A DNA stretch of 64,000 nucleotides from Leptospiraceae bacterium (GTDB lineage Bacteria > Spirochaetota > Leptospiria > Leptospirales > Leptospiraceae): contig JABTUZ010000002.1 of the NCBI GenBank assembly GCA_015075105.1, forward strand, positions 282,001 to 346,000, written 5' to 3'. This document shows positions 9,349 through 50,955 of this stretch, piece after piece (position 1 is the stretch's first letter; every line of letters begins with the position of its first letter). The notes under the pieces are model-generated. The model saw nothing but the letters and a program-made list of their open reading frames with translations, made no database searches and was not told the origin of the DNA. The translations under genes were made by a program, and so were the position numbers.

Positions 9349-9380
9349 AAAACTTTTTGAGGATAGAGTAGAATTAATGT
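9349..9380 (+). repeat. Left-end remnant of a gamma-type Hint segment
   Basis: AAAACTTTTTGAGGATAGAG followed by TAGAATTAATG closely matches the start of the T11 and T14 fragments (AAACTTTTTGAGAATGAAG, TAGAATTATTG), which encodes LFENEVELL inside a Hint domain. It is too short to be coding and marks the left edge of the array. The same AAAACTTTTTGA string occurs at the right edge (50934-50945). Confidence 0.55.
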
Positions 9381-10089
9381 ATGAAAGGGACTACGCTAAA
9401 GGAAATATTCAAATCCATCGCAGACGAATTAGAAAAACTCGGAGGGGGGAATTTCCCGAAGTAAAGCTGAATTCTGGGCAAGAGACCAGACCAGCAAGTT
9501 TTTCGGAACGTTAACCATGATGGATCAGACTGCCTCCGGAATTCCCGGATACATCTGGAGAATCACGGGCTTTCACACACGCGACCAGCACTCCAAACTC
9601 GCCGACACTTTTCACTCATGGGACAAACGTCCGAAAATTCTCTACGGCACAAAAACGATTCAGGCACATCCGGGAGAAGATTACAACTGCAGATGCTGGG
9701 CAGAGCCCATCTCACGGCGACGAAGAAGACCTGCAAAACGCAAAACTCTGGAAGGACGAGTGGGTTGCTACTGCGAGCGAACAAAGTCTTAGAGGAACTA
9801 ATGTTTTAGTGGATGGAATAGTGGAGCGGTCGCAAAAAATTCAAATTTTAAAAGCTACAAAATCAATCAATGATAAGCTGGATATTATCTCAACGACAGA
9901 TTAGCAGAAATTTGAATTTCATACCATGGATAAATCTCATCCTGGATTTTTGACATAAGCCAAATTTTATGATCCGTTAACCGGAAAAATTTACATCCGT
10001 CCAGACATTGACGATGCTGGTTTAATAGCTATTCATGAAAGTTTTCACAAGTTAGACAATAAATATCTTTCCGATTCCAAAACAAGAGG
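9381..10089 (+). pseudogene. Broken Mu F-like head-morphogenesis/zincin gene remnant
   Basis: The translation around 9448-9710 (FWARDQTSKFFGTLTMMDQ, HTRDQHSKLADTFHSWD, TIQAHPGEDYNCRCWAEPI) matches the C-terminal part of Mu gpF/SPP1 gp7-type minor head proteins, including the diagnostic HPGxDYNCRC. A one-base frameshift near 9715 moves the frame to DEEDLQNAKLWKDEWVATA. That frame then runs through in-frame stops TAG (9902) and TAA (9956) into FYDPLTGKIYIRPD and GLIAIHESFHKLD, where HESFH fits a zincin HExxH site. Several mutations make it a pseudogene. Mu F-like domains also occur in polymorphic toxins, so it may be an old toxin cassette rather than a prophage. It ends where the T1 Hint domain begins, in another frame. 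Confidence 0.65.
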
Positions 10090-11271
10090 AATCCAATCGA
10101 GTCACTGCAACTTGGCGAGAAAGCGCTGTCCAGAAACGAAATCACGGGTGAGCTTGAATACAAGCCGATTACGAAACTTTTCGAGAATGAAGTAGAATTA
10201 TTGTTTGACGTGGAAGTCGGAGGTATGGTAATTTCAACAACGTGGAATCATCCGTTTTGGGTAGAAACAAATTCCACAGGGCTGAAAATTCAAAAATGGA
10301 CTGAGGTGAAAGACCTCCGGGTTGGGGACGTCGTGACGCTGAAAAACAAATCTGAACACCCGATAAAAAACATCCGGCAATACAAAGTTCCACCGACGAA
10401 GGTTTACAACATCGAAGTCGAAAACGACCATACATATTTTGTGACTAAGAGCGACGTGTTGGTGCATAATTATGATCCGGATAAAAAAGGAGAAAATGGT
10501 ATAGTGAAATATGCTTCTTTTGCGAAAGATAGCTTGGTTAGCTTAGCGGATAGTGTTATCGGATATTTCAAAGGAGATGAGGAAAAAAATCAATTGAGCA
10601 TGAAGAAAGGAGAGACCATTAGAATTCAAGGAGATGATGGTATTGAGCATGAAATGACTCTTTCTAAAGATGGGAAAACAAAAAGCGTTAAAGTTTTTAA
10701 GGATGGAGAAAAGATTAGCGAATTCTCAGCGTGGAATCGAGAAGGTCAAGGTAGAGATAAGCAATTTGCAATAATGGATGGTCCGGAACATCCGGAATTG
10801 CAACCAAAAAAAAATGAAAGTGGCCATTATTCACCATTAAGCGGAAAAATTCAAGTTAATGACAGTGTTCATGGCGGAAAAGGATCGGATGATTTTCCGG
10901 ATACACCTGCGCACAGAAAAGATAAAAAACCTATTCATTCTTCAGGGCATAAAGGATCTGATTATCAAGTTCGAGAAAAAGGATTCAACCGTGACTTATA
11001 CGCTAATGAATCTGGAAAAGTTGATTTTGCAGGAGGGTATAATACTATCATTTTAAAATACGATTCTGGAAAAGAAGCAAAATATATGCACACTTCCGGA
11101 ATTGCTACAAATGTTTATCCTGGCTCGAAAATAAAGGCAGGGCAATATATCGGAAGAGCTGGAGGGACTGGCGGGGATAAAGGATATGACTCACATTTAC
11201 ACCAAGAAATTCGAGATAAAAAAGGGAAAGTATATAGTACTGATCAAGTAAGGAGGATATATGGTTACTAA
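10090..11271 (+). CDS. T1: Hint domain plus M23 (LytM) toxin tip, no start codon
   Basis: A 394-codon open frame beginning inside a Hint domain (PIESLQLGEKALSRNE) with no ATG or RBS at the junction; a TTG at 10201 is the first possible start. The gamma-type Hint keeps TTWNHPF (TxxH block) and ends VLVHN near residue 128, but the N-terminal Cys block is missing. After a linker (YDPDKKGENGIVKY) comes an M23 domain with zinc ligands in SGHKGSDYQV (HxxxD) and SHLHQEIRD (HxH). The enzyme would cleave peptidoglycan cross-bridges of a target cell after Hint self-cleavage. The last 11 bases overlap the immunity gene. Probably a silent cassette needing recombination with a full toxin. Confidence 0.85.
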   Translation, partial: NPIESLQLGEKALSRNEITGELEYKPITKLFENEVELLFDVEVGGMVISTTWNHPFWVETNSTGLKIQKWTEVKDLRVGDVVTLKNKSEHPIKNIRQYKVPPTKVYNIEVENDHTYFVTKSDVLVHNYDPDKKGENGIVKYASFAKDSLVSLADSVIGYFKGDEEKNQLSMKKGETIRIQGDDGIEHEMTLSKDGKTKSVKVFKDGEKISEFSAWNREGQGRDKQFAIMDGPEHPELQPKKNESGHYSPLSGKIQVNDSVHGGKGSDDFPDTPAHRKDKKPIHSSGHKGSDYQVREKGFNRDLYANESGKVDFAGGYNTIILKYDSGKEAKYMHTSGIATNVYPGSKIKAGQYIGRAGGTGGDKGYDSHLHQEIRDKKGKVYSTDQVRRIYGY

Positions 11272-11722
11272 GAAACAAATAATACTTTTGGCAGTATTCA
11301 CTATTTTGAGTTGGAATGTGGCTACATGTAAGGGACAAAAATTACCTTATCTTGATCCCGAGATCGAAATAGGAAAAAAAGAGTGCAATAAATTTCCAGA
11401 GCTTTCAGGTGTATGGAGAAATGAAAAAGTAGCAGTATGTATTTGCTTAAAGGATTATCCTTCTTTGACATTTAATTGTGACTATGATTATGTAGTAGGT
11501 AGTTTGCAAACTATTATTAGTATTAAAAAAGATGAAAAGCAATTCTTCATAGAAGGTGGGGAAGGAACTGAAACAGAAGAGCCGACTATATACAAAATGG
11601 AATTTTTAGACGAAAATTTAATCAAAATATGGTTTTTACCAAATAAAATATTACTCTTAAATAAAACTACCGAAACAGAAATGCCTAAACAAAAAAAAGG
11701 AGAGAATCCATATTGGAAATAA
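11261..11722 (+). CDS. I1: putative immunity protein for T1 (exported)
   Basis: A 153-residue protein with a signal sequence (KKQIILLAVFTILSWNVATC) and a possible relaxed lipobox ending ATC, rich in Cys and acidic residues; no known domain is recognised. It overlaps the T1 stop by 11 bases and has a strong RBS, AAGGAGG at 11250-11256, so it can be translated even if the toxin fragment is silent. The position and export signal fit periplasmic protection against the M23 enzyme. Function is inferred from context. Confidence 0.7.
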   Translation: MVTKKQIILLAVFTILSWNVATCKGQKLPYLDPEIEIGKKECNKFPELSGVWRNEKVAVCICLKDYPSLTFNCDYDYVVGSLQTIISIKKDEKQFFIEGGEGTETEEPTIYKMEFLDENLIKIWFLPNKILLLNKTTETEMPKQKKGENPYWK

Positions 11723-11735
11723 TTTTCCCCATGCC

Positions 11736-12411: not shown

Positions 12412-12696
12412 AAAATAACATCCATTCGCGAAATGTCAAGCAAATAGCCTTGCGAAAGCGACCGGACATCCGCCACAGCTTCCGCAAACAGGAGGATATA
12501 ACGCCTTATAGCGAGAGGGATCGAACGGAAACCCCACAGCCCCGTAATATCTGGATGTGAAGCATTACAGGTCAGAATTCAAGGGGCGAGGAGTTGGAGA
12601 GAGAGCCCGACCCCAGCCCTTGCCTTTCCAAAATTACGCAAGGGCTGGGGACTCGCCCTACTAACTTCTATCCACTAACAACTATCTTCTAAATGC
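12412..12696. repeat. Spacer with 13-bp perfect hairpin
   Basis: No gene seen. The clearest element is a perfect hairpin, CCCCAGCCCTTGC (12611-12623) and GCAAGGGCTGGGG (12638-12650), with a 14-nt loop. A weaker CACAGCCCC segment and ATAACGCCTTATAGCG lie upstream. At the right edge, just before the T2 coding homology, is GCGTTAGTTAC, matching the CGTTAG found at other toxin entry points. Confidence 0.55.
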
Positions 12697-14900
12697 GTTA
12701 GTTACTCTTACGAAGGAGGATTCGGCGCAAGCGTATCAGTTGGAATCGGAATCGGCCCTGCAAGGGCAGAGGTTGGGCTCAACTATTCGGAGCAAAACGG
12801 ATTTAGCGGAAGCGTCGGTGCGTCGTTTGGCATTGGTAAGACAAAAGTCGGAGTCAAAGCCAGCTACAGCCGGGACGGCGGACTTGGACTTGAGGCAAGC
12901 GCAATACGGAAATTACAAAGCTGGAATGAGCTATTCGCAAAGCGACGGATTCGGAGTCGTTGCAGGACTTACGAATTCAGATGGAACGAAAACAGTAGGA
13001 ATTGGCTACAGTGAGAAATCCGGAGTGGAGGCTTACGCGAAGGTAAGCTCGGACAGCGCGAGCGGGAAATTGTCCTACTCAAAATCGGAAGGGTTCGGAG
13101 TAGCGGTCACTGCAAAGACAAGCTATGCAAACGCAAGTGCGAGCTTCACTCAGAAAAGCGGACTAACGGTAAGCGTCAGCAAGCAGATGTCCACTGCGCT
13201 GACCGAGGGATTCAGAGGCAATGCGAATGCTGAAGTAAGTTACAATACGAAGACAGGATTTTCGGCAAGCCTTGGAATGACACTAACGTCCACAAGTCCG
13301 GTTTATGAAAAAGGAAAGTTTGGCGAAGTCGATAACGGAAGCGTTAGTGGAAATGTCCGGCTTGACCGAACAGGTTTCCAGGGTTCGACGACTGTAAACA
13401 CAGGACAGAATCTGGATATTGCATCCAACCTCAGTAGCATGGAGTCGAGCCTCGATGCGATGGCGGAAAGAAATCGTGAAGTAGTGAAGGAAAAAGCGCA
13501 GGCAGAGGCTGATAAGGATTTCAAAAAGAAATACAAAGATGTGATACCCGGAGTCGAAAATATGACTTCGGAGGAAATTGCTGCCACCAGAAAATCATTG
13601 GCTAAAGACAGCGGCGTTGTCACTGATCCTTTAGCAGATGGAACTTCGAGAGAAAGTATAGGATCAGAGATATTCGGAGCTCTTAGCGATCTTGGAAATA
13701 TTGTCACAGGTAACTATCGTGGAGGGGGAAATGATTTCTTCATCGACGCACAGGGCAACTACCACCAGAGGACTTGTTTTGTGAAGGGAACTCCTGTTTC
13801 CACTCTGTCCGGAAAAAAACCTGTTGAGGAAATCAAAGACGGCGATATTGTATTTGCCAAAGATGAGAAGACCGGAAAAATCGTCTTAAGCAAAGTGCAA
13901 CAGACATACATTAGAAAGACTGACAGGATTTACAAACTCGAATACGAAGACGGAATGGTAATCGAAACAACCCCGACACACCCTTTCAGGATACAAAGAG
14001 TCGAAAGCGACGGGCATATTACGGAAGACTGGATCGAAGCGCGATTCTTAAGAGAAGGAGACCGCTCTGTCCGAATCAACTCGAGGACGCTTGCGATTTC
14101 GCATATCGCATTCGAAGACCGCGAAGAGACTGTTTACAACTTCACAGTCGAGGAGAATCATAACTACTTCGTGGGTGATGCGGAAGTGCTTGTGCATAAT
14201 GAAGAGTATGCAGTAGAAGTAAAAGTTGTAAAAAAAATTGCTAGACTCAAAAGAATGAGGTGCCCATTTGAAATACAAGCCATGGATCAATTTCAACCCT
14301 GAATATGAGGCGCAAATGAAAGCAATAAAATCTGGAAAATATGTTGAGAGAAGTGTTGGTGATACGATTTTTTATCCTGGTAGCAACGCTACTAAAACCA
14401 TGCCAGAAAGCGTCGCAAAATTACAAAGGTCACGCAAAAAGTAACAATTGATGCTAATAAACTAGCCTCAACAAGAAAACTGGGAGGGAATTGATAAGTT
14501 GAACGGTAATCATGTTCGTGTTAAAGATAAAATAGTAGCAGGGATTAAAGTCGGAGAGGATAGAGTTGAGCAAACTTGGAGAGGAGACATTAGTTCACAA
14601 AAAACCTGGTATGGACCTGCTTCTGATTTTAAAGTAGTCAATGCCGGAGTAATGTCCCCCTATGGGGGGGTTGTCGATATTCAGTTATCAAACGGGCAAA
14701 AAGTTAGAATGGGTCATTTTGATAAAATTAATGTTGATGTAATGAATGCATACAGAAAAGGGGAATCGCTTCCAGCAGGAACTTATATTGGAGAAACAGG
14801 TAGCAAGATTGGATTTACTACCGGAGCTCATTTACATATAAAATCTTTAGATCAAAAATTTACAAGACAACAGGTGTTAAAATGGATGCAAAAGAAATAA
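12697..14900 (+). pseudogene. T2: longest toxin fragment (repeat body, Hint, M23-like), frameshifted
   Basis: Starts in a glycine/serine-rich body in frame 1 (SYEGGFGASVSVGIGIG, NYSEQNGFSGSVGASFG). Near 12899, GCAAGCGCAATACGG lacks two bases present in T8 (GCAAGCGCGCAATACGG), so the frame changes. The body then continues (YSQSDGFGVVAGLTN, YNTKTGFSASLGMTL) through a charged segment (SMESSLDAMAERNREVVKEK) to a Hint domain from NYHQRTCFVKG (about 13760) to VLVHN (about 14205). Two further shifts, near 14240 and 14480, separate the Hint from an M23-like domain (RMGHFDKINVDVM, TTGAHLHIKS), which keeps HLH but shows no clear HxxxD ligand pair. At least three indels make it non-functional as it stands. 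The body resembles very long Leptospira surface proteins, but I cannot name the family safely. Confidence 0.8.
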
Positions 14901-15399
14901 GAGCAAATTTTAAATTTATGTTATTAGTTGCGATTCTTACATTTTCTTCAGATTGTAAAGAAAAAGTAATCACGGAAAAGAAAATGGAGCTAACTGATTC
15001 TTCTAAAACAATTCTCGAACTTTTAAAAAAAAATAATGTTGAAGGAATTGTGAAAATGCTAAATGAGGGAGGGCTAACATATATATTCGGCGATGCAGTA
15101 ATCGATTTAAATTATGATAAAGCAAAAGACGATTTCTCAAAAACAACTTCCATAACGCATTTGTAAAATTCAACAGAAAAGTGAAAAAAAAAGCAAAATA
15201 ACAGTCCAGATTTAAAAACTTTCTTCAGGAAGCATTTTCCCATTCAGAGAAAATTAAAGAATGCTCTAAGAAGCCGTGCCATAATCAAAATAACTTTTAT
15301 ATTCATGCTGAATATGGGTTTTTTAATTACTATATCTATTATGATTGTTTTGAAAAATATGGTTGTATCATATTATCATTTTATACTAATCCTAAATAG
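14882..15399 (+). pseudogene. I2: frameshifted lipoprotein immunity gene
   Basis: Begins MDAKEIRANFKFMLLVAILT with lipobox-like FSSDC, overlapping the end of T2. The frame stops at 15166, but the -1/+1 frame continues with FSHSEKIKECSKKPCHNQNN and YYIYYDCFEKYGCIILSFY to a stop at 15397-15399, so a frameshift near 15150 splits it. The N-terminal half (ILELLKKNNVEGIVKMLNE) weakly resembles I14 (IIGAILAEDLILLKEMFDK), whose toxin T14 is also the closest relative of T2. Inferred immunity to the M23-like tip. Confidence 0.65.
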
Positions 15400-15420
15400 T
15401 TTTTCTGAAATTCAATACTG

Positions 15421-17690
15421 TTGCTCTTCGCAAAAATAAGATTTAACCCTGAAAAAGACAGGGTTTTGCGAGAAGATGGAAAAATTGTCCCGAAAAAAAA
15501 ACCCATTCAAATAGAAAGAGTTTGCATTTTTATCAAAAGGCCAGTAAAAACGAGCAGTAACAGCAACAACAAAACGTTAAATGCCATCAAAAAAATTTTC
15601 TTTCTGCCGTGAAGAAAACCACCATTACTAAATCGCCTAACGCTCTCTCGACACAGTGAGGCTGTAGCAATTTTCCAAAAAAACAGCCTCGCCAAAACCA
15701 TATCATCAGGCACTAACGCATCATGGGAAGAAGGCCAAGCCAAATTTTACCACCTGACAAAAAAAAGCACAAAAGCAATTTACCTGAGGATCCAATGGGT
15801 TACCCAACAAAAGCAATTTTCTTTTGCATTTTAAAGCAAAAAAAAATAACACTTCGAAAAGCTTTATGCAAAACTACTCGGCAGTCTGTCCGACATCGGA
15901 AATCTTGCGACAAAAACCTACCGTAAGCAACCAAACAAAATATATCGACGAAAACGGGCAACTACCACCAACGTCATGTTTTGCCAAGGGACGTTAGCCA
16001 AATACTGCGAAACGGTCAAAAACCCTATCGAAACATATCAACTTGCCAAAAACTCTATCCAGAAACGAAATCACGGCAATGCAAAACACCGGTACATTAC
16101 GAAACTTTGCCGAATTATTGTTTGACGCAAAACGCCCGGAAATAATTTCAACTACGTGCAATCACCATTCTGGGTTGAAAAGATTTTCCATTGAAAATCC
16201 AAAAAAAAACAGCAAGACCAAAACATGGCATCAACCGAAAAAATTATCTGAAACACCATTTAAAACATCCACCAATACAACGTCTCTCCGACAAAAAAAA
16301 TACATCATCAACGAAACAACCACAACCACTTCGCCGGCGAGGCCGAGTCTGGCGTACATTATCTACTTACTGCCACGAAAACAGCAAAACTCTTGAAAAG
16401 CTTGATGCCATTTAGGGAAGAAAGCTTTAATTCACAAAAAATGGATACCGCATCTTTCAAAAAAAAAGTTGATTCAAAAAAAAAAAATAGAAGAGCAAAA
16501 AACAATCTTCAAAACCAACTCACAAACTTGCGCACCCTATCGAAAAATCAATTTGAAAATAACTGCAAATATCGATCAATCAAGATCAAAAATAAATTAT
16601 ATGCAAACAAGGAAGAACAAAAAAGGCGGGCCATGCAACAAAAAAAGTGATAGTTTCACCAATTAAAACTTTCGCAATAGACAACAGCATTGATAAAAAG
16701 CCCAAAAACAATCACGGGAAAATAAAAAATCGAATCGGCGAAAAAGCAAAACAAATTTTGAATGGGCAACAATTGGAAGAATTTTGAAAACCAACCGCCG
16801 CATTTCAACATCATCACAATGCAAAAAAAATTCGCACAAAAAACAAAAAGGGCAGTAAAAAAAAAACAGTTAAATATCGTATTATTGCCATGCCGCCAAG
16901 CAAAATGAAAAACTGGCTGGCTTCGCCCAGAAATTGATAATAATTTATTAACCTCTGCCAATCAAATCTTGCGCTTAAAAATTCAAAAATCAAAAATACC
17001 GCAAAAAAACAAAAAAAACGCTTGAAAAGCAGCCAAACTGCAGGAATATAAACAAAAAACTTCTTTATCAAAATTAGCATTTTAGAGAACGAAATCAACT
17101 GAAAAATGTTTGCATCAACAACAATCTGGGCCATGCAAAGAAAACAGTTTCATACTATACCGAATGGCATTATAAACAGCAACAACAAATCTCGGTTCAT
17201 GCCAAGATTGCAATTTTTCTTTCCAAAAACAGCAACTGCGGCCGCCGTCGCATCGGCAACAACCGCCTTATATTGCCATCTCTGAAAAAACCACGAAAAA
17301 CAAAATATTTCACCCATTCTTATATAGCCAAACAAAAAAAACAAATCAAAATCTACAAAACCATACGCCACCATCACGCAAAGCATCATCCAGCACGTCT
17401 GATGAAGCCAAATGGATAAATCGCCACACATGAAGCCAAAGTCAAAATCTAAACATGTAAAAAAACATGAACTGATTCAAGGGTTTCAAAAAAAGGAACC
17501 TATTCAACAATCATTTAAAACGCACCGGCAAATGCAAAAGAAGCTATCACGTCTTGAAAGCAAATTTTCTTTTGCCTAGAGACTAAATGGAACAGTAAAC
17601 CATACAAAACAAAAGAAGTTAACTGCATTTGTTGAAAAAACAAAAATTGTCATTAGAACACCACATAGGCATTTTTCGCAAAAGACAGAA
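15421..17690 (+). pseudogene. T3: G-depleted, heavily degraded spacer and toxin-tip copy
   Basis: The first 70 bases match the standard spacer element (as at 27090) exactly; similarity then decays. At 15847-15990 the sequence aligns with the DGTSRESFGAELLGSLSD...NYHQRTCF region, and at 16020-16380 with a gamma-type Hint domain, but positions that are G in sister copies (especially GG) are usually A or C. Example: GACGTGGAAGTCGGAGG in T1 against GACGCAAAACGCCCGGA here. From about 16400 to 17690 there is only A/C-rich sequence with no credible ORF, presumably the former tip and immunity gene. The minus-strand frames open here are products of composition. Either strongly strand-biased decay or poor sequence quality. 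Confidence 0.6.
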
Positions 17691-17693
17691 ACG

Positions 17694-18348: not shown

Positions 18349-18350
18349 AT

Positions 18351-19538: not shown

Positions 19539-19543
19539 CTAAT

Positions 19544-40246: not shown

Positions 40247-40340
40247 AGACAGGATCAGACATGTGAAATGTTACAGTTAAAAAAATCCAAAAAATATTAA
40301 ACACTCAGAGTTTTAAAATGAGAATTTTTTAGTTGAAAAT

Positions 40341-40529: not shown

Positions 40530-40536
40530 GAGCAAT

Positions 40537-43065: not shown

Positions 43066-43082
43066 GGAAACGGAAAATTAAC

Positions 43083-43956: not shown

Positions 43957-45177
43957 GATGGCACTTCGAGAGAAAGCTTTGGCGCAGAACTACTCGGCAG
44001 TCTGTCCGACATCGGAAATCTTGCGACGGGAGCCTACCGTGGTGGCAACCAAACAGGATATATCGACGAGGCGGGCAACTACCACCAGAGGACGTGCTTT
44101 GTTGCCGGGACGTTAGTTCGGACGAAAACTGGCTTTGTTGAAATTGAAAAAATAAAAATTGGCGATGAGGTGATGTCTCTGAATGAAAAGACTGGCGAAA
44201 TCTCTTCGCACAAAGTAACGGAGACTTTTATTCATGATGTGAAGCTACTCTACCGCCTAACGTATGAAAATGGGACAGTTTTGGAGACTACATGGAATCA
44301 CCCGTTTTACATTCGGGGACGTGGTTGGATTGAAGTAAAAGACTTGTATGAAAAGGACAGGTCGGTTACAATGTCCAGTGTGAAAAATTCACAAAGGAAG
44401 CCCGCCCTTGTGTTAGCATCGATTAACTCTGCCAATAATGAAAATATTTTGTGGGCAGAGGAAATCAAAGGCACACTTGGAATCGTGAAGATAGAAAAAG
44501 TTCACAGAGCCGACAAGGTTTACAATATCGAAGTCGAAAACGACCACACATATTTTGTGACTAAGGGTGAGATGCTGGTGCATAATTATCCCGGTCAAAA
44601 TTTGGTTAGAGGAGTTGCATCGTTATTTCCAAAAGGAAATATTATTGAAAAATTGGACAAGAATTTAACTGTTTCCGAATTTAAAGAATCAGTTGTATTT
44701 GGCGAGGGAGCCAATCCTGAGCATATTCCGGATGATGCAATGTATGAACTGTCGCGGGTAGCCGAGAAATCTGGAGTAAAAAACCTTATTATTTCGAGCA
44801 CAAGGAGAGATGCTAAAGATCAAGCAAGGGTAATGTATAATAATTTGGAATCGGAAGGTGTAGATGCTCAAAGAGAATTATACAAAAAGGCTGATGACCA
44901 GGTAATTGATGTATATGTAGCAGGAAAAAAATCTGGAGAATCAAAGTCAGAAATTAAATCTGCAATGGAGAAAAAAATATCAGCATTAGGTCCATCAAAA
45001 GTATCCAATCATGCAGCCGACCCAAATAAAGTGACTACATTTGACGTAGCTCCATCATCAATTCCTGCGGACAAGCGAAAATCATTTATTAAGGCTGCTA
45101 AAGCCAACCCGAATATTCAAAAAGTAATCCCGCCACCAAAGGATCCAGGGATTCATTTTGAGATACCAAGACATTAA
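43957..45177 (+). CDS. T13: beta-type Hint domain plus M15-like tip (T5 family)
   Basis: A 407-codon frame entered at DGTSRESFGAELLGSLSD, no ATG at entry. The Hint runs from NYHQRTCFVAG to MLVHN and is nearly identical to T12 and T6. The tip contains MYELSRVAEKSGVKNLIISS, KVSNHAADPNKVTTFDVAPS and DPGIHFEIP, homologous to T5 (SRHCSNDGKVIDIAPSS, DPAYHIEFK), so H, D and HxE are the likely zinc and catalytic residues. M15-like peptidoglycan peptidase inferred. Confidence 0.8.
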   Translation, partial: DGTSRESFGAELLGSLSDIGNLATGAYRGGNQTGYIDEAGNYHQRTCFVAGTLVRTKTGFVEIEKIKIGDEVMSLNEKTGEISSHKVTETFIHDVKLLYRLTYENGTVLETTWNHPFYIRGRGWIEVKDLYEKDRSVTMSSVKNSQRKPALVLASINSANNENILWAEEIKGTLGIVKIEKVHRADKVYNIEVENDHTYFVTKGEMLVHNYPGQNLVRGVASLFPKGNIIEKLDKNLTVSEFKESVVFGEGANPEHIPDDAMYELSRVAEKSGVKNLIISSTRRDAKDQARVMYNNLESEGVDAQRELYKKADDQVIDVYVAGKKSGESKSEIKSAMEKKISALGPSKVSNHAADPNKVTTFDVAPSSIPADKRKSFIKAAKANPNIQKVIPPPKDPGIHFEIPRH

Positions 45178-45196
45178 AAGATGGAGACTGTGAATT

Positions 45197-45778
45197 ATGA
45201 ATAATGACACTCAATATTATGCACCAATAAAATGTATAATATCATTGATATTTTTTCTTCTTCTTAGCGTAACGTGTAAACAAAAAGAACCTGAAAAGAA
45301 AGTCGAAGATGTGAAAGTAGAAAGGATTAGTTTGAGCGAACTGGAAAAATTTCTTGGGGTCTATCAATACTTCTATGAATATCCCGCTAAAAATCTAAGC
45401 GAAGATCATTTTATACTATTAGAAAAGGAGAAAAATGAAATTAAAGGCTATTACTATGGGACAAGTGATGATTTTGATCGGACAAGAGAAGGATATCTTC
45501 CTGGATTCTTTGTGGCTGAAATGAAAAATATGCGCCTTCATGATGGGAATTTTAGCTTTTCTTTGTTTGTCAAAGATGAAGAGGTCTTTGACAAAGCGAT
45601 TTCTCTTGAATATAGAAGTTCTATACAATTGCCGAAGGGCAAGTTCAAAATATGGAAGTATGGTATTGAAACTCATCAAAGAGAATATAAAGGCAAGATT
45701 GAAGCTGGTAAGATAACATTATATTTTGACCCTGAGGATCCAATAGAAACCGAAAGATTATTCAAAAAGATTAAATAG
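45197..45778 (+). CDS. I13: lipoprotein immunity protein for T13 (I5/I13 family)
   Basis: 193 residues, signal KCIISLIFFLLLSVTC. The core FLGVYQYFYEYP and GYYYGTSDDFDRTREGYLPG aligns with I5, while T5 and T13 tips also align, supporting specific pairing. The family itself is not recognised by name. Confidence 0.78.
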   Translation: MNNDTQYYAPIKCIISLIFFLLLSVTCKQKEPEKKVEDVKVERISLSELEKFLGVYQYFYEYPAKNLSEDHFILLEKEKNEIKGYYYGTSDDFDRTREGYLPGFFVAEMKNMRLHDGNFSFSLFVKDEEVFDKAISLEYRSSIQLPKGKFKIWKYGIETHQREYKGKIEAGKITLYFDPEDPIETERLFKKIK

Positions 45779-45966
45779 CCCATTATTTATTGTCCCTCGC
45801 AAAATAGGATTTTAGTCAATAAAGACAGGGTTTGCGAGAAGCTGAGAAAATTGTTCTAAAAAAATCGGATTTTTAGGATTGAAAGAGTTAGAATTTTTGC
45901 GAAAATAGAATCCGAAAAGTCTAAAAAATATTGGACGTTGAAAAACTTTGAAAAAATTATAACAGT
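45779..45966 (+). repeat. Spacer element 1 and upstream region of HicB
   Basis: CCCTCGCAAAATAGGATTTT with CAGGGTTTGCGAG, the AAAAAAATCGGATTTTT segment, then AAAAAATATTGGACGTTG and AAAACTTTGAAAAAAT just before hicB. The last 45 bp closely match 49993-50040 upstream of the 50042 antitoxin, so they may be a shared promoter/operator. Confidence 0.55.
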
Positions 45967-46188
45967 ATGAAGCAACTAAAAATCATTATTGAAAAGCATT
46001 CAGACGGTTATATCGGATATCCTCTTGGATTAAAGGGCACAGTCGTTGGTCAAGGTAATAGCTATGACGAGGCTCTTAGCGATGTGAAATCTGCAATTCG
46101 GTTTCATATTGAAACTTTTGGCAAAGAAGTTTTTGAAGAAGAGTCGCCGGTTATTGAAGCATTTGTCGCAGAAACAGTAACTGCTTAA
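45967..46188 (+). CDS. hicB: HicB-family antitoxin
   Basis: A 73-residue HicB-like protein: LKIIIEKHSDGYIGYPLGLK, VGQGNSYDEALSDVKSAIRF, with the compact HicB fold. It precedes the HicA-like gene by 5 bp, the reverse order of the first HicAB module, so the two modules are of independent origin. Confidence 0.85.
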   Translation: MKQLKIIIEKHSDGYIGYPLGLKGTVVGQGNSYDEALSDVKSAIRFHIETFGKEVFEEESPVIEAFVAETVTA

Positions 46189-46193
46189 TATCT

Positions 46194-46436
46194 TTGTCCA
46201 GAAAATTTCCTGTTGATGCTCCTAAGGCTAAGGTTATCCGAGCGCTTGAAAGCCTCGGTTTTGAAATTGTTAGAGAGAGGGAGCACATTGCAATGCTACG
46301 AACCAACTCGGATGGCACAAAAACGCCATTAACTTTACCAAATCATTCCAAAATTAAAGGCTCTACTCTTCGCTCAATTTGTTCACAATCGGGAATTGCG
46401 CGAGATGATTTTATTGAAGCGTATGATAACGGATAA
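46194..46436 (+). CDS. hicA: HicA-family toxin (TTG start)
   Basis: An 80-residue HicA-like protein: RKFPVDAPKAKVIRALESLG, REREHIAMLRTNSDGTKTPL, NHSKIKGSTLRSICSQSGI. The active His is probably in REHIAM. No ATG is available, and TTG at 46194 follows the hicB stop by 5 bp, so translational coupling is likely. Confidence 0.85.
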   Translation: MSRKFPVDAPKAKVIRALESLGFEIVREREHIAMLRTNSDGTKTPLTLPNHSKIKGSTLRSICSQSGIARDDFIEAYDNG

Positions 46437-46967
46437 AATTGCGTTATCTAAAATGTCCCTCGCAAAAATAAGATTTAACCCTGAAAAAGACGTGGTTTTG
46501 CGAGAAGAAGGGAAAATTGTCCCGAAAAAATCGGATTTTGGAATTGAAAGAGTTTGGATTTTTGCGAAAATAGAATTCGAAGATAGCAAGAAACAGTGAG
46601 AACAAAGGGGTTAGAAGCGGAATTTTTTTTCTAATTTGGCAATTCACAGCACCAGCCCTTCCCGCCCAAGTGCTGGACAGGTGGATTGCCAAATTCAGAG
46701 AGCCTTTTGATGAGTCACAATATCGCCTAACGTATCATGGGAAGTTAGGCGAAGCCGAATTCTTCTATTCCTGAAAAGCCAAAGGGAGCCACAGCACCAC
46801 CAACTCGGAAACAGTGGTGCTGGACAGGCTGTTCTGCCCGATTTTCCTGAGGATGCAGTAAGCGGGTCTTTTTCCCAGCACCTGCCCTTTCCGCCCAAGT
46901 GCTGGACAGGCTTTCTTTGCGAGCCTTTCTTTTTTTTCTACAGAGAAAAAGAAAGAAAGCGAAAAAA
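46437..46967 (+). repeat. Cassette spacer with type B core (before T14)
   Basis: CCCTCGCAAAAATAAGATTT at 46457; hairpin AATTTGGCAAT (46633-46643)/ATTGCCAAATT (46685-46695) with inner CAGCACC ... GTGCTG; palindrome TCGCCTAAC-N12-GTTAGGCGA (46723-46752); CAGCACCAC (46792-46800)/GTGGTGCTG (46814-46822); CCAGCAC (46875-46881)/GTGCTGG (46899-46905); a T/A hairpin variant at about 46925-46960. Confidence 0.77.
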
Positions 46968-48000
46968 ATTTTTGAGAACGAAGTAGAATTATTGTTTGAC
47001 GTGGAAGTCGGAGGAATGATAATTTCAACAACGTGGAATCACCCGTTTTGGGCATTAGTCCCTCACCATTTATCGAGCTTGTTCAGTGTCTATAAAAGGT
47101 ACTGCGGTATGTGAGCGAGAAAAATGGTGAGTGGATTGAAAGAGACTCCACCGGGCTGAAGATTCAAAGATGGACAGAGGTGAAAGACCTCCGGGTTGGG
47201 GATATCGTGACGCGGAAAAATAAATCCGGGCAGACGATTAAAAATATCCGGCAATACAAAGTTCCACCGACGAAAGTTTACAACATCGAAGTCGAGGACA
47301 ACCACAACTATTTCGTGGGTGAGGCTGGTGTCTGGGTGCATAATTACCCGCTTACGGGTACGAACAGTATGGGTCTTGGAGAAACTTTGGTAAATTTAGG
47401 GAAGAAAGCAATTGATGGGGTGGTGAATTTATTTGACTCAAAAAGTAATAATAAAGAAAAATTAAAAACCTACGGAATTCCTGATGAATTACCAGAGTAT
47501 GACACCATTGAATACACACCAAAAGAAAAATCGAAAACTGATATAAGAGGAACATTTCCAAATATTGCGAATACAGTAGAATTTGAAGATATCAGAGATA
47601 TAAAAACAGACTATTATAAAAATAAAATTGGTAAAAATGGTCATACAACTCCAGCGTTGGATTTTGGAAAGAACGCAAATAAAACGACTGAATGGTTGGA
47701 CCGAATCAAGAATTTATACCAACTTTTGTCGGCACAGTGGAGGGCTTTGGTGGAACAGTCTATTTTAAAACTAACGATGGCACTATATTGAGAGCTGGAC
47801 ATTTTACAAAAATAAATTCTGTGGTTAAATACGCAGCTGAAAATAACAAAAAACTGCCACCCGGTACTTATTTAGGATCGACTAAGGGATTAATAGGCTA
47901 TACAAGTAACTCTCATCTACATGTTGACGGACGACGAGGCAATAAATCTGTTCCGAGTCAAGAAAAAATAAAAACTATTTTAAATGGAGAAAATAAATGA
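46968..48000 (+). pseudogene. T14: Hint split by hairpin insertion, frameshifted M23-like tip
   Basis: Entered at FENEVELLFDVEVGG. The first frame ends at 47114 inside an insertion after NHPFW with arms CTCACCATTT (47062-47071)/AAATGGTGAG (47122-47131), the same element as in T11 but with a longer loop. The Hint resumes from 47111 (GEWIERDSTGLKIQRWTEVK) to GVWVHN. The tip shifts frame near 47692: upstream NGHTTPALDFGKNANKTTE, downstream GFGGTVYFKTNDGTILRAGH and SNSHLHVDGRR (HLH). TPALDFG sits where HxxxD should be. Relative of the T2 tip. Not functional as a single protein. Confidence 0.76.
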
Positions 48001-48470
48001 AATCAAGAAAAATCATCATGGCTTTCTTATTATTCTTTTTTATATTCTCAACTTTTGACCTATATTCACAGAAATCAAATGTAAAAGAAAGTATAATTGG
48101 TGCAATTTTAGCTGAAGACCTAATTTTATTAAAGGAGATGTTTGATAAAGAAGTTTATATTTCGAATGGGTTTGAAACTCAATTTTCGAATGAAAACGGA
48201 TATGATGGGTTTATTCAAAAAAAAGGAGATTTATACAAAGTTCTTTTTAATTCAATATTTGCCAAGGATTACTTTGGGATTGAAAAAGTTCAATCCTTCC
48301 GAGAAGTTATGAAGATGATACCTAAGAAAGGGAAATTTTTTGAAAATCAAAAAGAAGGCTCAGCTGAATTGGTTTTTCAAAATAAAAACCTCATATATAG
48401 TATTACTTTGCTATGTTCAAAAAAGGGTAATTGTAAAATTACGGTGTTCAGTATCAGTGAGTGGCATTAA
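47997..48470 (+). CDS. I14: putative secreted immunity protein for T14
   Basis: 157 residues with a signal peptide (KIIMAFLLFFFIFSTFDLYS) and no lipobox; overlaps the T14 end by 4 bases. Helical start (IIGAILAEDLILLKEMFDKE), then SAELVFQNKNLIYSITLLCS. Distantly similar to I2, as T14 is to T2. Confidence 0.68.
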   Translation: MKSRKIIMAFLLFFFIFSTFDLYSQKSNVKESIIGAILAEDLILLKEMFDKEVYISNGFETQFSNENGYDGFIQKKGDLYKVLFNSIFAKDYFGIEKVQSFREVMKMIPKKGKFFENQKEGSAELVFQNKNLIYSITLLCSKKGNCKITVFSISEWH

Positions 48471-48488
48471 TTATAGTAAACAAAAACA

Positions 48489-49418
48489 ATGTCATACCGT
48501 AAAGTTGGCGACGAACTGAAAACTGCAAACTCAAGTCCCCTGTTTATCTCAGCAATTTCGACTAACGCACGCGAAGAAACCGTTTACAACTTCGAGGTTG
48601 AGGGTAATCACACCTACTTTGTTGGGGAAGACGGGGTCTTGGTGCATAACGAAGCGCAGTTCTACGGAAGTTTTGATGTTTCTGCAGGGTTAAAAAGATT
48701 ATTCGGAAGTAAACAAAATAACCCTCAGAAAGGCGCACAGGATAGCGCGAGTCAAAATGCAAAAGACGCAATGCTTGGTGCATCGACTTTGACCGGCCGC
48801 AGACGAGAAGGCGAGGAAGGGGATTCTGAGAATTATTTTCCAGAAGGTTTAAGCGATGAAACAAGACAAAATATTTTATCTCAAGCGGAAAAAATGAATA
48901 AACTGCCTTATGTTTGGGGAGGTGATGGAAAAAATGCAGTCACACTAACAAAAGACTATACTTTTGAAGAAAAAGATGGTGTGGTGAATAAAGTCAAAAC
49001 AGCAGATGGCAAGAAAGTCTCGCAGAGCGTTATCGGTGCTGACTGCACTCATTACGGAACAAAATTGTATAATGATGCCGGAGTCCCTGCCAAGTATCAC
49101 ACAACGGCAGATTACTATGAAGGCAATGCAAAAGATTATGTACAGATTTCAGAAAAGGATTTAAAGCCTGCTGACAAGATTATCCATCGAGTGGAAAAAA
49201 TAAATGGTGGATATTCCGGACACGAGACAATTTTTATCAAAAAAGATGCAAAAGGAAACAATATCGTGACCCAATCTACAGATACAGATAAAAATAATGG
49301 GGTTAGGGTAAGCGGAGTAGATAATTCTAAAACTGCATACACTATTAACGCAGATTCCTATAAAGCCAATACTTACGAAGTGAAATATTTTAGATATGTA
49401 GGAAATAGAAAAAAATGA
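48489..49418 (+). CDS. T15: C-terminal Hint piece plus NlpC/P60-like tip, with ATG
   Basis: Begins 18 bp after I14 with no spacer. ATGTCATACCGT opens MSYRKVGDELKTANSSPLFI, the last third of an alpha-type Hint ending GVLVHN. No Cys or TxxH block remains, so it cannot self-cleave. The linker NEAQFYGSFDV is like T4. The tip (KLPYVWGGDGKNAV, SQSVIGADCTHYGTKLYNDA, GGYSGHETIFIKK) has the NlpC/P60 Cys and His. Because it has a start codon it might be expressed as a free cytosolic enzyme, without its delivery parts. Confidence 0.8.
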   Translation: MSYRKVGDELKTANSSPLFISAISTNAREETVYNFEVEGNHTYFVGEDGVLVHNEAQFYGSFDVSAGLKRLFGSKQNNPQKGAQDSASQNAKDAMLGASTLTGRRREGEEGDSENYFPEGLSDETRQNILSQAEKMNKLPYVWGGDGKNAVTLTKDYTFEEKDGVVNKVKTADGKKVSQSVIGADCTHYGTKLYNDAGVPAKYHTTADYYEGNAKDYVQISEKDLKPADKIIHRVEKINGGYSGHETIFIKKDAKGNNIVTQSTDTDKNNGVRVSGVDNSKTAYTINADSYKANTYEVKYFRYVGNRKK

Positions 49419-49945
49419 AAAAAAAAGAAATATTAAATTTCAAGCTTTCAGTATTTTTAGTATTCTTATTTATCTTTGCCATCGCAGACTGCAATAAAAA
49501 GGAGATAGGTGTGCAACCAAAGATAAAGTTAGAAGCAAAAAATGTTACTCAGGAAGATGTTTTGGCGATTGAAAAATTGACGAAAATGTATGTTGATCAG
49601 ATTATAAAAGAATATCCGCCCGATATGAAGCCGATCGATCATCTATATATGAAAGATGCTGATCCCGGACCAAAATCAGATGATTTGACTTTGTATGTAA
49701 TTGATAGTTACGAAATTTCAGCTATTAAGGAATTTGAATATGTTGATGATAAAAATATAAAATGTGTTGAAATAAAATTCAAAGTAATAGCAGAAGATAA
49801 AGGCGATGATTTTAAAAATGTTTCCCCATATATTAGAGAGCAAACTATGGGCGTAATAAAAGAAGGAGGCGAATGGAAAGTTGCAACTGAATATGCCGAC
49901 CGTCTCGTTTATAAAAATTCTAAGGTGAAAAGAGTTTCGTATTGA
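49415..49945 (+). CDS. I15: lipoprotein immunity protein for T15 (I9/I15 family)
   Basis: 176 residues (signal LSVFLVFLFIFAIADC). The mature part TLYVIDSYEISAIKEFEYVD and TMGVIKEGGEWKVATEY aligns with I9, while T9 and T15 share the NlpC/P60 tip. Overlaps T15 by 4 bases (ATGA type). Confidence 0.76.
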   Translation: MKKKEILNFKLSVFLVFLFIFAIADCNKKEIGVQPKIKLEAKNVTQEDVLAIEKLTKMYVDQIIKEYPPDMKPIDHLYMKDADPGPKSDDLTLYVIDSYEISAIKEFEYVDDKNIKCVEIKFKVIAEDKGDDFKNVSPYIREQTMGVIKEGGEWKVATEYADRLVYKNSKVKRVSY

Positions 49946-50041
49946 GATGGGATTGTAGAAAAATATTTGCTCGTAGAAGCGGAAGACGAAAAAGTTTAAA
50001 AAATATTGGACATTTGGAAACTTTGATAAAAAAATAGAAAT

Positions 50042-50251
50042 ATGAGCGCGACATCAATCAAAAGACAATATATAACAAGCCCTTCAGGGAAAAAAGTAGC
50101 CGTAGTTATTAATCTGCGCACATTTAAAAAGTTGCTGGAAGAATCTGAGGAGCTGGCATCGATTAAATCCTTTGACGAAGGTATGAAGGAAAAGATGAAG
50201 GCAATTCCGTTTCAAAAGGCAATATCCAGAATCGAAAAAATAAAATATTGA
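50042..50251 (+). CDS. Antitoxin of the second RelE module (Phd/RelB-like)
   Basis: 69 residues: RQYITSPSGKKVAVVINLRT, FKKLLEESEELASIKSFDEG, a Phd/RelB-type layout with an N-terminal beta/helix DNA-binding part and C-terminal helix. It overlaps the toxin gene by 4 bases. The 45 bp upstream matches the sequence before the HicB gene at 45967. Confidence 0.83.
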   Translation: MSATSIKRQYITSPSGKKVAVVINLRTFKKLLEESEELASIKSFDEGMKEKMKAIPFQKAISRIEKIKY

Positions 50252-50502
50252 ACTATTCAATATCCATTGTACCGAGAGCAGAAAAAACTCTTTCAAAAAT
50301 CAATAGCCCTACTTATGAAAAAATAAAAAAAGAAATCGGAAAGCTGGAAAAAACACCTAAGCCGGTGGGCGTAAAGAAGTTAAAAGGACGAGAGGGATAT
50401 CGCATCAGGATTGGGAACTACCGAATTATATACTCAATTGATGATATAAAAAAGATGATTTTGATATTGGGTGTTGATCATCGTAAAGACATATATCGAT
50501 AA
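50248..50502 (+). CDS. RelE-family type II toxin
   Basis: 84 residues with the canonical RelE pattern: YSISIVPRAEKTLSKINSPT, KPVGVKKLKGREGYRIRIGN, YRIIYSIDDIKKMILILGVD, HRKDIYR. The GNYRIIY and HRKDIYR motifs are diagnostic. An mRNA interferase acting on the ribosome. Confidence 0.93.
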   Translation: MNYSISIVPRAEKTLSKINSPTYEKIKKEIGKLEKTPKPVGVKKLKGREGYRIRIGNYRIIYSIDDIKKMILILGVDHRKDIYR

Positions 50503-50790
50503 GAGTCTGCAAAAATAAGTTTTGAGCCAATGAAGACGGGGTCGGTTTTGCGAAAAATGGGAAAACTTTTAAAAAATGCGCACAGTGCGCAGTTTTTAAA
50601 TTTTGAAAATAAAACCACAATATCGCCAAACGTATCATGGAAAGTTAGGCGAAGCCGAATCTTACTGTTACTGAAAAGCCAAAGGGAGCCGCACCACCAA
50701 CTCGGAAACAGTGGTGCTGGACAAGCTTTCTTCGCGTAGAATTGAGAAAAAGCGAAGTCCCTCACAAATTCTGAAAGAATTGGTGAGGGA
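50503..50790 (+). repeat. Last spacer, with type B core and hairpins
   Basis: TCTGCAAAAATAAGTTTTGA; TGCGCACAGTGCGCA palindrome near 50577; TCGCCAAAC-N12-GTTAGGCGA (50623-50652, one change from the type B consensus); GCACCAC/GTGGTGC near 50694-50718; a stem TCCCTCACAAATT ... AATTGGTGAGGGA (about 50758-50790) directly before the last toxin fragment. Confidence 0.7.
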
Positions 50791-50955
50791 AACTACCACC
50801 AGAGGACTTGCTTTACAAAGGGGACGTTAGTGGATACGCAAACCGGACCTAAGGAAATTAAAAAATTGCAATTGGGTGAGAAAGCACTTACAAGGAATGA
50901 AAAAACCGGAAAGATGGAATACAAACCGACCACAAAACTTTTTGAAAACTATTAG
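50791..50955 (+). pseudogene. T16: N-terminal part of a gamma-type Hint domain, right end of array
   Basis: 55 codons: NYHQRTCFTKGTLVDTQTG, KLQLGEKALTRNEKTGKMEY, KPTTKLFENY then TAG. It is the N-terminal half of a gamma-type Hint and stops exactly where T11 and T14 begin (LFENEVELLF). Together they would make one Hint domain, so the breakpoint is the same and the array seems to have been cut and extended there. Confidence 0.75.

What the first reader, a model, noticed from the sequence alone, without database searches (positions are those of the whole stretch)
9349..50955. A 41-kb array of about 16 silent polymorphic-toxin tips with immunity genes
Seen: fragments T1-T16 share toxin body and Hint sequence but carry different C-terminal enzymes, most followed by an exported immunity-like gene. 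No copy has a toxin N-terminus and most have no start codon. Known: orphan cdiA-CT/immunity and Rhs-tip modules are stored downstream of full-length toxins and swapped in by recombination. Inference: this is a spirochaete toxin-tip reservoir much larger than usual, feeding a full-length acceptor elsewhere.
Basis: partly seen in the sequence, partly recalled or inferred. Interest (0 to 1): 0.92.

Follow-up and report, generated by a model that had tools for sequence, protein, structure and literature searches.

The report
Orphaned bank of toxin tips and immunities
A spirochaete-like bacterium carries about 17 truncated ends of a large bacterial toxin, mostly predicted cell-wall-cutting enzymes each followed by an exported protective protein, but the full-length toxin they would plug into was not found in the held genome, so the row looks like an orphaned archive of weapons and shields rather than a live magazine.

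Summary
Window 9335-50955 carries about 17 plus-strand units of toxin-body and/or Hint (PF07591) sequence, a varying C-terminal enzyme and usually a small exported gene. Nine run open from break to stop; eight are truncated, interrupted or decayed. No unit has an N-terminus. The missing N-terminus exists in relatives: eight frames of 1770-2226 aa combine NCBIfam TIGR04388 with this Hint. The key inference fails here: the held genome (99.97% complete) has no TIGR04388 match, and every body or Hint hit lies inside the array. Of 19 genomes with this Hint among 120 (own included), 12 lack TIGR04388 at 1e-5; this one has the most Hint matches (14; next 9).
Predicted tips: M23, M15/M74-like and NlpC-like wall enzymes (12 of 14, several on weak evidence), one alpha/beta-hydrolase-like, one JAB-like. 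Exported genes pass a signal criterion in 13-15 of 15. Body and Hint copies show dN/dS 0.02-0.25 and chimeric joints at GNYHQRTCF, so they diverged as working protein and recombined. Closest known: mafB-CT/mafI cassettes of Neisseria. I read it as an orphaned cassette archive whose immunities may still work. Separately, the spacers are rich in a dispersed, uptake-signal-like word, TTTCGYMTAACGYA.

The parts
9335..10192 (+). U1: decayed fragments; Phage_Mu_F-like piece 9433-9789, then an HExxH-containing piece 9959-10192; no intact frame
   Evidence: Pfam PF04233 E 3e-6, 28.4 bits against a cut-off of 29.6; frames
10063..11722 (+). U2: Hint remnant + M23 tip (10471-11268) + lipoprotein-like immunity 11261-11722
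   Evidence: PT-HINT and Peptidase_M23 over cut-off; SD and signal; HxxxD and HxH present
12665..15166 (+). U3: body C + tail + Hint, interrupted before an M23 tip piece (14466-14897); lipoprotein-like gene 14882-15166
15415..17900 (+). U4: decayed spacer, tail A and Hint remnants, no open tip
   Evidence: repeats to 17902-17981, 27096-27698 and others; frames broken
17902..20170 (+). U5: spacer + tail A + Hint type 1 + M15/M74-like tip (18891-19535) + lipoprotein-like immunity 19544-20170
   Evidence: the tip's family rests on HxxxxxxDI ... HLH motifs only; no Pfam match of note and the structure model failed
20339..21157 (+). inserted unrelated 272-aa frame, no Pfam match
21250..23794 (+). 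U6: spacer + body B + Hint + M15-like tip (22538-23152) + lipoprotein-like immunity 23183-23794
   Evidence: model pLDDT 82 with the M15 enzyme VanXYc on top, Z 5.5, mixed with unrelated rows
24269..26460 (+). U7: spacer + body C/tail A' + Hint type 2 + M23 tip (25437-25976) + Sec-signal-like immunity 25963-26460 (signal start about 25999)
   Evidence: M23 E 7e-25
27086..29664 (+). U8: spacer + tail A + Hint + alpha/beta-hydrolase-like tip with HSQGG (28112-28990) + lipoprotein-like immunity 28945-29664 (signal start about 28984)
   Evidence: weak, E 0.01; Hint
30058..30828 (+). exported MORN_2/SH3_3 protein, possible extra immunity
   Evidence: Pfam PF08239, PF07661
30890..33048 (+). U9: spacer + body C joined, without Hint, to a JAB-like tip (to 32664) + NTF2-fold-like lipoprotein immunity 32698-33048
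   Evidence: HTHP..S..D motif, no Pfam match for the tip; Imm-NTF2-2 E 1.6e-5, 25.4 bits against a cut-off of 26
33053..35070 (+). U10: spacer + tail A + Hint type 1 + NlpC/P60-like tip (33789-34544) + lipoprotein-like immunity 34549-35070
   Evidence: (under cut-off)
35236..37987 (+). U11: spacer + body B + Hint + M23 tip (36669-37268) + lipoprotein-like immunity 37265-37987
   Evidence: M23 E 2e-26
38214..40246 (+). U12: spacer + broken Hint + M23 tip (38757-39404) + lipoprotein-like immunity 39404-40246
   Evidence: M23 30.0 bits, over the cut-off of 28.7
40317..40737 (+). HicA/HicB toxin-antitoxin pair between units
40757..43586 (+). U13: spacer + body B + Hint type 2 + M74-like tip (42349-43062) + lipoprotein-like immunity 43083-43586; chimera of body B and Hint 2
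   Evidence: M74 E 0.008, under cut-off
43602..45778 (+). U14: spacer + tail A + Hint type 2 + M15-like tip (44587-45174) + lipoprotein-like immunity 45197-45778
   Evidence: 41% identical to the U6 tip; Hint
45952..46433 (+). second pair with a HicA toxin (46158-46433); partner 45952-46185 not identified
46454..48470 (+). U15: spacer + Hint remnant + interrupted M23-like tip (47345-47788 and 47692-47997) + Sec-signal-like immunity 47997-48470
   Evidence: M23 weak, E 0.017
48480..49945 (+). U16: C-terminal Hint remnant + NlpC/P60-like tip (48651-49415) + lipoprotein-like immunity 49415-49945
   Evidence: homologous to the U10 tip, E 4e-6 for the pair; no Pfam match of its own
50030..50499 (+). 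RelB-like/ParE toxin-antitoxin pair
   Evidence: ParE over cut-off, RelB-like just under
50560..50955 (+). U17: spacer + GNYHQRTCF + N-terminal Hint stub, no tip

Best explanation
This is an orphaned cassette array of a spirochaete Hint-type polymorphic toxin. In relatives the toxin is a long secreted protein (eight frames of 1770-2226 aa): a TIGR04388 N-terminus, a glycine-rich body, a GNYHQRTCF-type seam, a Hint domain presumed to cut itself, and a swappable tip. Here only the 3' halves are kept, each with its immunity gene, behind related spacers. The tips are untranslated or not exported, because they lack an N-terminus and signal peptide. The immunity genes look translatable and exported, mostly as lipoproteins, and would shield the periplasm against kin or competitors carrying the same wall-cutting tips. 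New cassettes enter and are reshuffled by homologous recombination in spacer, body and the GNYHQRTCF seam. Shown: anatomy, no detectable acceptor, purifying selection, mosaicism. Inferred: immunity expression and protective role, Hint cutting, and that divergence arose in full-length donors.
For: No TIGR04388 in own genome; 18 of 18 Hint hits, 12 of 12 body+Hint hits and 4 of 4 body hits lie inside the array. Relatives' long frames combine TIGR04388 with this Hint (E 1e-90 to 1e-112 in the three scanned). dN/dS of body and Hint pairs is 0.02-0.25; of 44 differences between two body-B copies, 40 are at third positions. Chimeras: U5, U8 and U14 differ at 0-1 of 90 sites in tail A and drop to about 38-64% identity past HQRTCF; U13 joins body B to a Hint 94-96% identical to those of U7 and U14. 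Exported genes pass the signal criterion in 13 of 15 at the first start codon and 15 of 15 at starts I chose, against 17 of 44 background genes; 12 of 15 have a cysteine placed as in lipoproteins.
Against: No expression data. Immunity genes lie directly behind silent tips, so they need a promoter that I could not show (in 17000-36900, 58 promoter-like sites against 45.6, sd 6.4, in shuffles). Their Shine-Dalgarno matches are often only 4 nt, the same as those of internal starts in the toxin frames. A 4-contig assembly could hide one gene in a gap. Strong purifying selection on truncated bodies fits equally well an acceptor lost only recently or still present in sister strains.
Confidence: 0.55

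Rival explanations
1. Live reservoir: a full-length acceptor exists in this species (assembly gap or other strains) and receives tips by recombination.
For: Relatives have full-length forms; cassette bodies are under strong purifying selection and recombine at the Hint seam; the genome is in four pieces.
Against: 0 TIGR04388 matches at E <= 0.1 and no body or Hint hit outside the array in a 99.97% complete genome. Twelve of 19 Hint-bearing genomes, own included, lack TIGR04388 at 1e-5, though several of the twelve are incomplete.
Confidence: 0.22
2. Graveyard: residue of a lost toxin locus, with no present function, decaying.
For: Eight of about 17 units are truncated, interrupted or decayed; acceptor gone.
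Against: Nine long frames and the exported genes are intact; paralogue divergence is overwhelmingly synonymous.
Confidence: 0.15
3. Each cassette makes its own short Hint-tip protein from an internal start, as considered possible for class 1 mafB-CT genes in Neisseria, and acts after lysis or in vesicles.
For: In-frame starts exist in all nine long frames, 6 of 9 with at least a 4-nt SD match.
Against: No signal peptide behind a start codon on the fragments; starts lie at different places inside body or Hint.
Confidence: 0.06
4. Integron-like cassette array moved by site-specific recombination at attC-like GCCTAAC/GTTAGGC sites in the spacers.
For: GCCTAAC and GTTAGGC core-like words in the spacers, hairpins at spacer ends (8 folded, z -0.9 to -3.6), interspersed TA pairs.
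Against: No integron integrase over the family cut-off in the genome (best 122 bits against 265); the same search also rings under the cut-off in all 14 control genomes. The word is solitary and genome-wide, largely in coding DNA. Mosaic joints lie inside the gene at HQRTCF, not only at a spacer site.
Confidence: 0.02

Closest known systems
Maf polymorphic toxins of Neisseria: mafB-CT cassettes and mafI in maf genomic islands (PMC4287609, passages seen)
   Same: Many truncated C-terminal cassettes, each followed by at least one immunity gene; a type without initiation codon called potentially silent; another type with an intein-like (BIL) domain; swapping supported by genome comparison; a competent genus with DNA uptake sequences.
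   Different: There the cassettes lie downstream of a full-length mafB; the cassettes with the intein-like domain are the ones that do have a start codon, and the silent ones carry a WDWVKN motif instead; N-terminus is DUF1020, not TIGR04388; tips named in the passages are EndoU-fold RNase and deaminase, here almost all wall or envelope enzymes with exported immunities.
Orphan cdiA-CT/cdiI and rhs-CT/rhsI modules (PMC3150448, start of abstract seen in the listing; rest recalled)
   Same: Toxin tip plus immunity stored without N-terminus.
   Different: Usually downstream of an intact cdiA or rhs; Hint is not their defining joint (recalled).
Polymorphic-toxin cassette arrays and polyimmunity loci of Zhang et al. 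2012 (PMC3482391, passages seen)
   Same: Loci with arrays of toxins or cassettes, often with adjacent immunity; HINT as a processing domain; spirochaetes among carriers; NlpC/P60 toxins predicted to attack walls.
   Different: Polyimmunity loci are described as never interrupted by toxin cassettes; here tips remain. The words Leptospira and M15 do not occur in the part of the text held.
TIGR04388 ('Lepto_longest') proteins
   Same: Same body-Hint layout; full-length parent form in relatives.
   Different: No full-length member in this genome. No paper in the library names TIGR04388. One paper notes a pretoxin HINT domain in the Leptospira protein LA_3725 (PMC4751964, passage).
Acquired interbacterial defence clusters of orphan immunity genes (PMC12247911 and PMC10470768, listings only)
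   Same: Proposed protective role of immunity genes kept without their own delivered toxin.
   Different: Those clusters keep immunities without tips (recalled) and concern T6SS toxins.

Membership tests
Polymorphic toxin cassette array | variable C-terminal toxin domains on a shared upstream part | tested here: met
   Shared body and Hint; at least M23, M15-like, NlpC-like and other tips
Polymorphic toxin cassette array | immunity gene directly behind each tip | tested here: met
   14 of the 14 units with a recognisable tip are followed by a small exported gene; pairing itself is untested, and of 9 scanned only one has a named immunity fold, slightly under cut-off
Polymorphic toxin cassette array | pretoxin processing domain (PT-HINT) | tested here: met
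   PF07591 over cut-off in 8 of 10 proteins scanned
Polymorphic toxin cassette array | full-length acceptor in the same genome | tested here: not met
   an assembly gap is not excluded
TIGR04388 proteins | TIGR04388 N-terminal model match | tested here: not met
   No match in own genome; met in relatives' long proteins. The window units are C-terminal halves only
Integron cassette array | IntI integrase in the genome | tested here: not met
   No match over the TIGR02249 cut-off
Integron cassette array | paired attC sites at every cassette joint | tested here: inconclusive
   Core-like words in spacers, but the same word is solitary and genome-wide
M15 peptidase (U6, U14 tips) | SxH...D and HxE zinc motifs (recalled) | tested here: met
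   U6 by pattern; U14 missed the pattern but has the same residues with two more in between
M15 peptidase (U6, U14 tips) | fold | tested here: inconclusive
   VanXYc ranks 1-3 and 5 (Z 5.2-5.5, 113-114 residues, rmsd 4.3-4.4), ChiX Z 4.6, VanYB Z 4.1-4.3, all under Z 8 and interleaved with unrelated rows at Z 4.7-5.3; Foldseek has no match at E <= 0.001, VanXYc at E 1.4
DNA uptake sequence (spacer word) | short word dispersed far above chance, both strands, coding DNA included | tested here: met
DNA uptake sequence (spacer word) | raises uptake in transformation | not testable with these tools
   needs a bench test

The most novel reading that the evidence does not exclude
The spacers tag toxin-tip/immunity cassettes with a spirochaete DNA-uptake word (TTTCGYMTAACGYA), so that a naturally competent population trades wall-cutting tips and their shields through an acceptor-less gene bank. 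This would be a DUS system outside Neisseriaceae and Pasteurellaceae, and a cassette economy that works for immunity alone.
Probability: 0.15. Interest if true: 0.8.

Novelty: new variant of a known kind. Interest (0 to 1): 0.56.

Why it matters
It links an unnamed giant-protein family (TIGR04388) to polymorphic toxins with recombining tips, gives a case where cassettes seem to outlive their acceptor (12 of 19 Hint-bearing genomes sampled lack TIGR04388 at 1e-5), and offers about a dozen predicted wall enzymes with candidate periplasmic inhibitors. Whether stored immunities alone are selected is an open question that this locus makes testable.

Tried and rejected
Integron idea (attC-like spacer words): dropped for lack of IntI and because the word is genome-wide and solitary. 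Rfam found nothing at gathering scores in the window. Array as an insertion that split a MaoC-thiolase operon: in six relatives the HCDH and thiolase genes are adjacent, but no MaoC match lies in the flanks held (1.5 kb, more in two), so the empty site was not found. PDB sequence searches with five tips gave no useful hit. PHROGs gave only a weak shared minor-tail hit (phrog_329) for the two NlpC-like tips and nothing useful for the other six; NCBIfam added only a weak murein-endopeptidase hit for U13. The second structure model (U5 tip) failed at pLDDT 31.6. The genome-contig scan with one Hint protein gave 2 distant hits and did not name the organism. Contig ends (6 kb each) showed no rRNA in Rfam and no toxin frame that I recognised; contig C4 read as N in the 1000 bases taken. 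A tblastx step inside one search printed nothing and was not used. The promoter scan covered 17000-36900 only and was close to chance. Spacer comparison is mixed: the last 92 nt before body B differ by JC 0.03-0.05 while the body behind has dS about 0.40-0.42, but a longer 304-nt stretch gives 0.11 and a fourth copy, before body C, 0.30-0.32; before tail A, spacers (0.04-0.16) and tail dS (0.05-0.10) agree. So import of diverged bodies behind a shared spacer is supported for one group only.


Full report
OBSERVATION. Between minus-strand housekeeping genes (MaoC-like 8198-9067; thiolase 51496-52761) lie about 41.6 kb in which all 94 BLASTN self-matches are direct and the units are on the plus strand. 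Translation of the plus strand gives about 17 units: spacer, piece of toxin body and/or Hint, tip, small exported gene. Nine frames run open from break to stop (18327-19535, 21530-23152, 24405-25976, 27473-28990, 31357-32664, 33201-34544, 35571-37268, 41272-43062, 43891-45174). Three more are open from inside the Hint (10063-11268, 38442-39404, 48480-49415). Two are interrupted before or in the tip (12665-14897, 47096-47997). Three are decayed or stubs (9335-10192, 15415-17900, 50560-50955).

PARENT PROTEIN. A search of 61 genomes with body plus Hint found long relatives. Five full frames of 1770-2115 aa were read in two genomes of the same order. The three given to NCBIfam match TIGR04388 at E 1e-90 to 1e-112 over their first half. 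They continue with the glycine-rich body, a GNYHQRTCF-type seam (variants occur), Hint and a unique C-terminus. Over, eight frames of 1770-2226 aa in G016, G023 and G027 hold both TIGR04388 and this Hint. So the window units are 3' halves of TIGR04388-type proteins. Among 120 genomes, TIGR04388 is found in 10 at 1e-5, 7 of them over the cut-off (in some genomes only part of the candidates was scored). The array's Hint alignment is found in 19 of 120 at 1e-5, own included. Seven genomes have both, but in G011, G013 and G021 the TIGR04388 match is weak, under cut-off and in other, giant frames. In G028 the two lie on different contigs. Twelve have the Hint without TIGR04388; of these G024, G062, G072 and G096 are 60-87% complete. 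In G016, G023 and G027 all 13 Hint matches lie in frames of at least 1770 aa. In G003, G007, G014, G015, G018 and G024 the frames are 51-703 aa apart from one of 1056. In the five remaining, phylum-level genomes they are 357-1138 aa. The own genome has 14 matches, the most; next are G023 with 9 and G007 with 6. Fragmented assemblies may be undercounted. In the same family, G001 and G002 have TIGR04388 frames (1664 and 1454 aa) but no Hint match.

NO ACCEPTOR HERE. TIGR04388 gives 0 matches at E <= 0.1 in the 99.97% complete own genome, all 3 candidates scored. Body (4 hits), body plus Hint (12) and Hint (18 stretches; 14 with the alignment) all fall within the array. The genome is in two large and two small contigs. 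A hidden gene in a gap cannot be excluded.

TIPS. M23 is over the Pfam cut-off in five units and weak in a sixth (47692-47997, E 0.017). The tips of U6 and U14 are 41% identical. The U6 model (pLDDT 82) has the M15 enzyme VanXYc on top (Z 5.5 over 113 residues), with ChiX and VanYB lower, interleaved with unrelated rows of similar Z. Foldseek alone gave no significant match. This is modest, but consistent with the SxH..D..HxE residues. U5 and U13 carry HxxxxxxD[IV]-type and HLH motifs; U13 also has a sub-threshold M74 hit. U10 and U16 are homologous (E 4e-6 for the pair) with G-x-D-C-[ST] and a later GH. U10 has sub-threshold NlpC/P60 and Amidase_5 hits; U16 has no Pfam hit. U8 has HSQGG and a weak Abhydrolase_1 hit (E 0.01); U9 has a JAB-like HTHP..S..D motif and no Pfam hit. 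The meaning of the motifs is recalled; the matches are. Tally of 14 tip-bearing units: M23 6, M15/M74-like 4, NlpC-like 2, alpha/beta-hydrolase-like 1, JAB-like 1. Only the five strong M23 assignments are above a curated cut-off. Active-site residues are not complete in all: U3 lacks the HxxxD motif in the open piece, and U15 is interrupted. By contrast, of ten relatives' proteins scanned, two have named nuclease tips (WHH/colicin-DNase in G003, Tox-REase-7 in G023), one DUF6973, and seven nothing beyond Hint domains or no match.

IMMUNITY GENES. Fifteen small genes (14 tip partners plus 30058-30828) have a hydrophobic stretch near the N-terminus. With the criterion used for the background (hydrophobicity and non-negative charge before it), 13 of 15 pass at the first start codon and 15 of 15 at starts I chose. 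In the background 17 of 44 SD-bearing 150-300-aa frames of the 400-kb sample pass. Twelve have a cysteine placed as in lipoproteins. Shine-Dalgarno matches of at least 4 nt precede 12 of 15 first starts and 14 of 15 chosen starts; some are strong (TAAGGAGG, AAGGAG), many only 4 nt. Of nine candidates given to Pfam, two have a sensible match: Imm-NTF2-2 for 32698-33045, just under cut-off, and MORN_2/SH3_3 for 30058-30825. Exported immunities fit tips that act on the wall or membrane; this is inference.

SELECTION AND RECOMBINATION. Pairwise dN/dS is 0.02-0.25 for the longer body and Hint comparisons (0-0.35 for the 31-codon tails). Two body-B copies differ at 44 sites, 40 of them third positions. 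Silent pseudogenes do not diverge like this, so most divergence arose while the sequence was translated as protein, presumably in full-length donors. Joints are mosaic. U5, U8 and U14 differ at 0-1 of 90 sites in tail A, their spacers at 4-15% of sites, and past HQRTCF they fall to about 38-64% identity. U13 joins body B to the Hint of U7 and U14 (94-96% identical). The last 92 nt of spacer before body B diverge far less (JC 0.03-0.05) than the synonymous sites behind (0.40-0.42), but a longer stretch gives 0.11, and in the tail-A group spacer and tail agree. G+C is 38.4% in the array, 34.7 and 32.9% in the window flanks and 34.2% in the 400-kb sample, in line with, but not proof of, foreign origin.

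MECHANISM. Best reading: an orphaned bank of tip/immunity cassettes. Tips are silent because no N-terminus or signal is attached; immunity lipoproteins may be made and shield the periplasm; recombination with incoming DNA renews and shuffles units. Shown: anatomy, lack of a detectable acceptor, mosaics, selection. Inferred: expression of immunities, shield role, Hint cutting, donor context.

UPTAKE-LIKE WORD. CGCCTAACG occurs 17 times in the window, all in the array (expected 0.07): 13 in spacers and 4 in Hint coding (positions held). Genome-wide WTCGCCTAACG has 76 copies against 1 for the reversed control, 12 of the 76 in the array. In the 400-kb sample CGCCTAACG, CGCATAACG and CGTCTAACG total 43. 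Of these, 36 lie in long frames (331 of 400 kb), in 4 of 6 frames, against a mean of 1.7 (maximum 5) in 60 synonymous-codon shuffles. Of 12 relatives searched, five are rich in the word (G005-G007, G016, G027: 36-72 against 3-9 control copies) and seven are not (0-8), G023 with its many full-length toxins having none. Spacer copies are not independent events because spacers are repeats. An uptake signal is the most familiar kind of such a word (recalled); a Chi-like function is equally open.

PLACE AMONG KNOWN SYSTEMS. The mafB-CT/mafI cassettes of Neisseria (PMC4287609, passages) are the nearest: truncated cassettes with immunity behind each, one type without start codon, another with an intein-like domain. 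Differences here are the lack of an acceptor in the genome, another N-terminal family, mostly wall-directed predicted tips with exported immunities, and Hint on cassettes without their own N-terminal start. Arrays of cassettes as such are known (PMC3482391, passages). No paper in the library names TIGR04388. A search for Leptospira with polymorphic toxin gave 6 papers; of these I read passages of one, PMC4751964, which notes a HINT domain in LA_3725. A narrower search (three of Leptospira, Hint domain, contact-dependent, toxin immunity) gave none.

Noticed in passing
genome-wide; window 15634-46724: Dispersed word TTTCG[CT][CA]TAACGYA, solitary, on both strands, mostly in coding DNA, far above codon-shuffle expectation; rich in the array spacers. 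Possible DNA-uptake or Chi-like signal.
   Followed up: partly
L097-L116 (400-kb sample): A second over-represented word, ATGTGGGAACTCC/GGAGTTCCCACAT (GTGGGAACTC 16 against 0.32 expected by order-2 Markov).
   Followed up: no
window 40317-40737, 45952-46433, 50030-50499: Two pairs with a HicA toxin and one RelB-like/ParE pair sit between cassettes.
   Followed up: partly
window 62283-62942 (minus): Phage_integrase-family recombinase, 219 aa, about 11 kb beyond the array.
   Followed up: no
window 9433-9789: Phage_Mu_F-like fragment at the array's start (E 3e-6, just under cut-off), a domain also used as a polymorphic-toxin carrier (PMC3482391 passage).
   Followed up: no
G013, G011, G021: Giant frames of 2752-5043 aa with a weak TIGR04388 match to model positions of about 25-195 (E 4e-9 to 5e-6).
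   Followed up: no
spacer ends, e.g. window 18310-18350, 27495-27535, 38370-38408: AT-rich near-perfect hairpins (TTTTTTTCTTTTT..GAAAAAGAAAAAAA) end several spacers at the point where different body fragments begin.
   Followed up: partly
window 20339-21157: A 272-aa frame between units with no Pfam match; it looks like a PD-(D/E)XK-type transposase relative (recalled resemblance).
   Followed up: no
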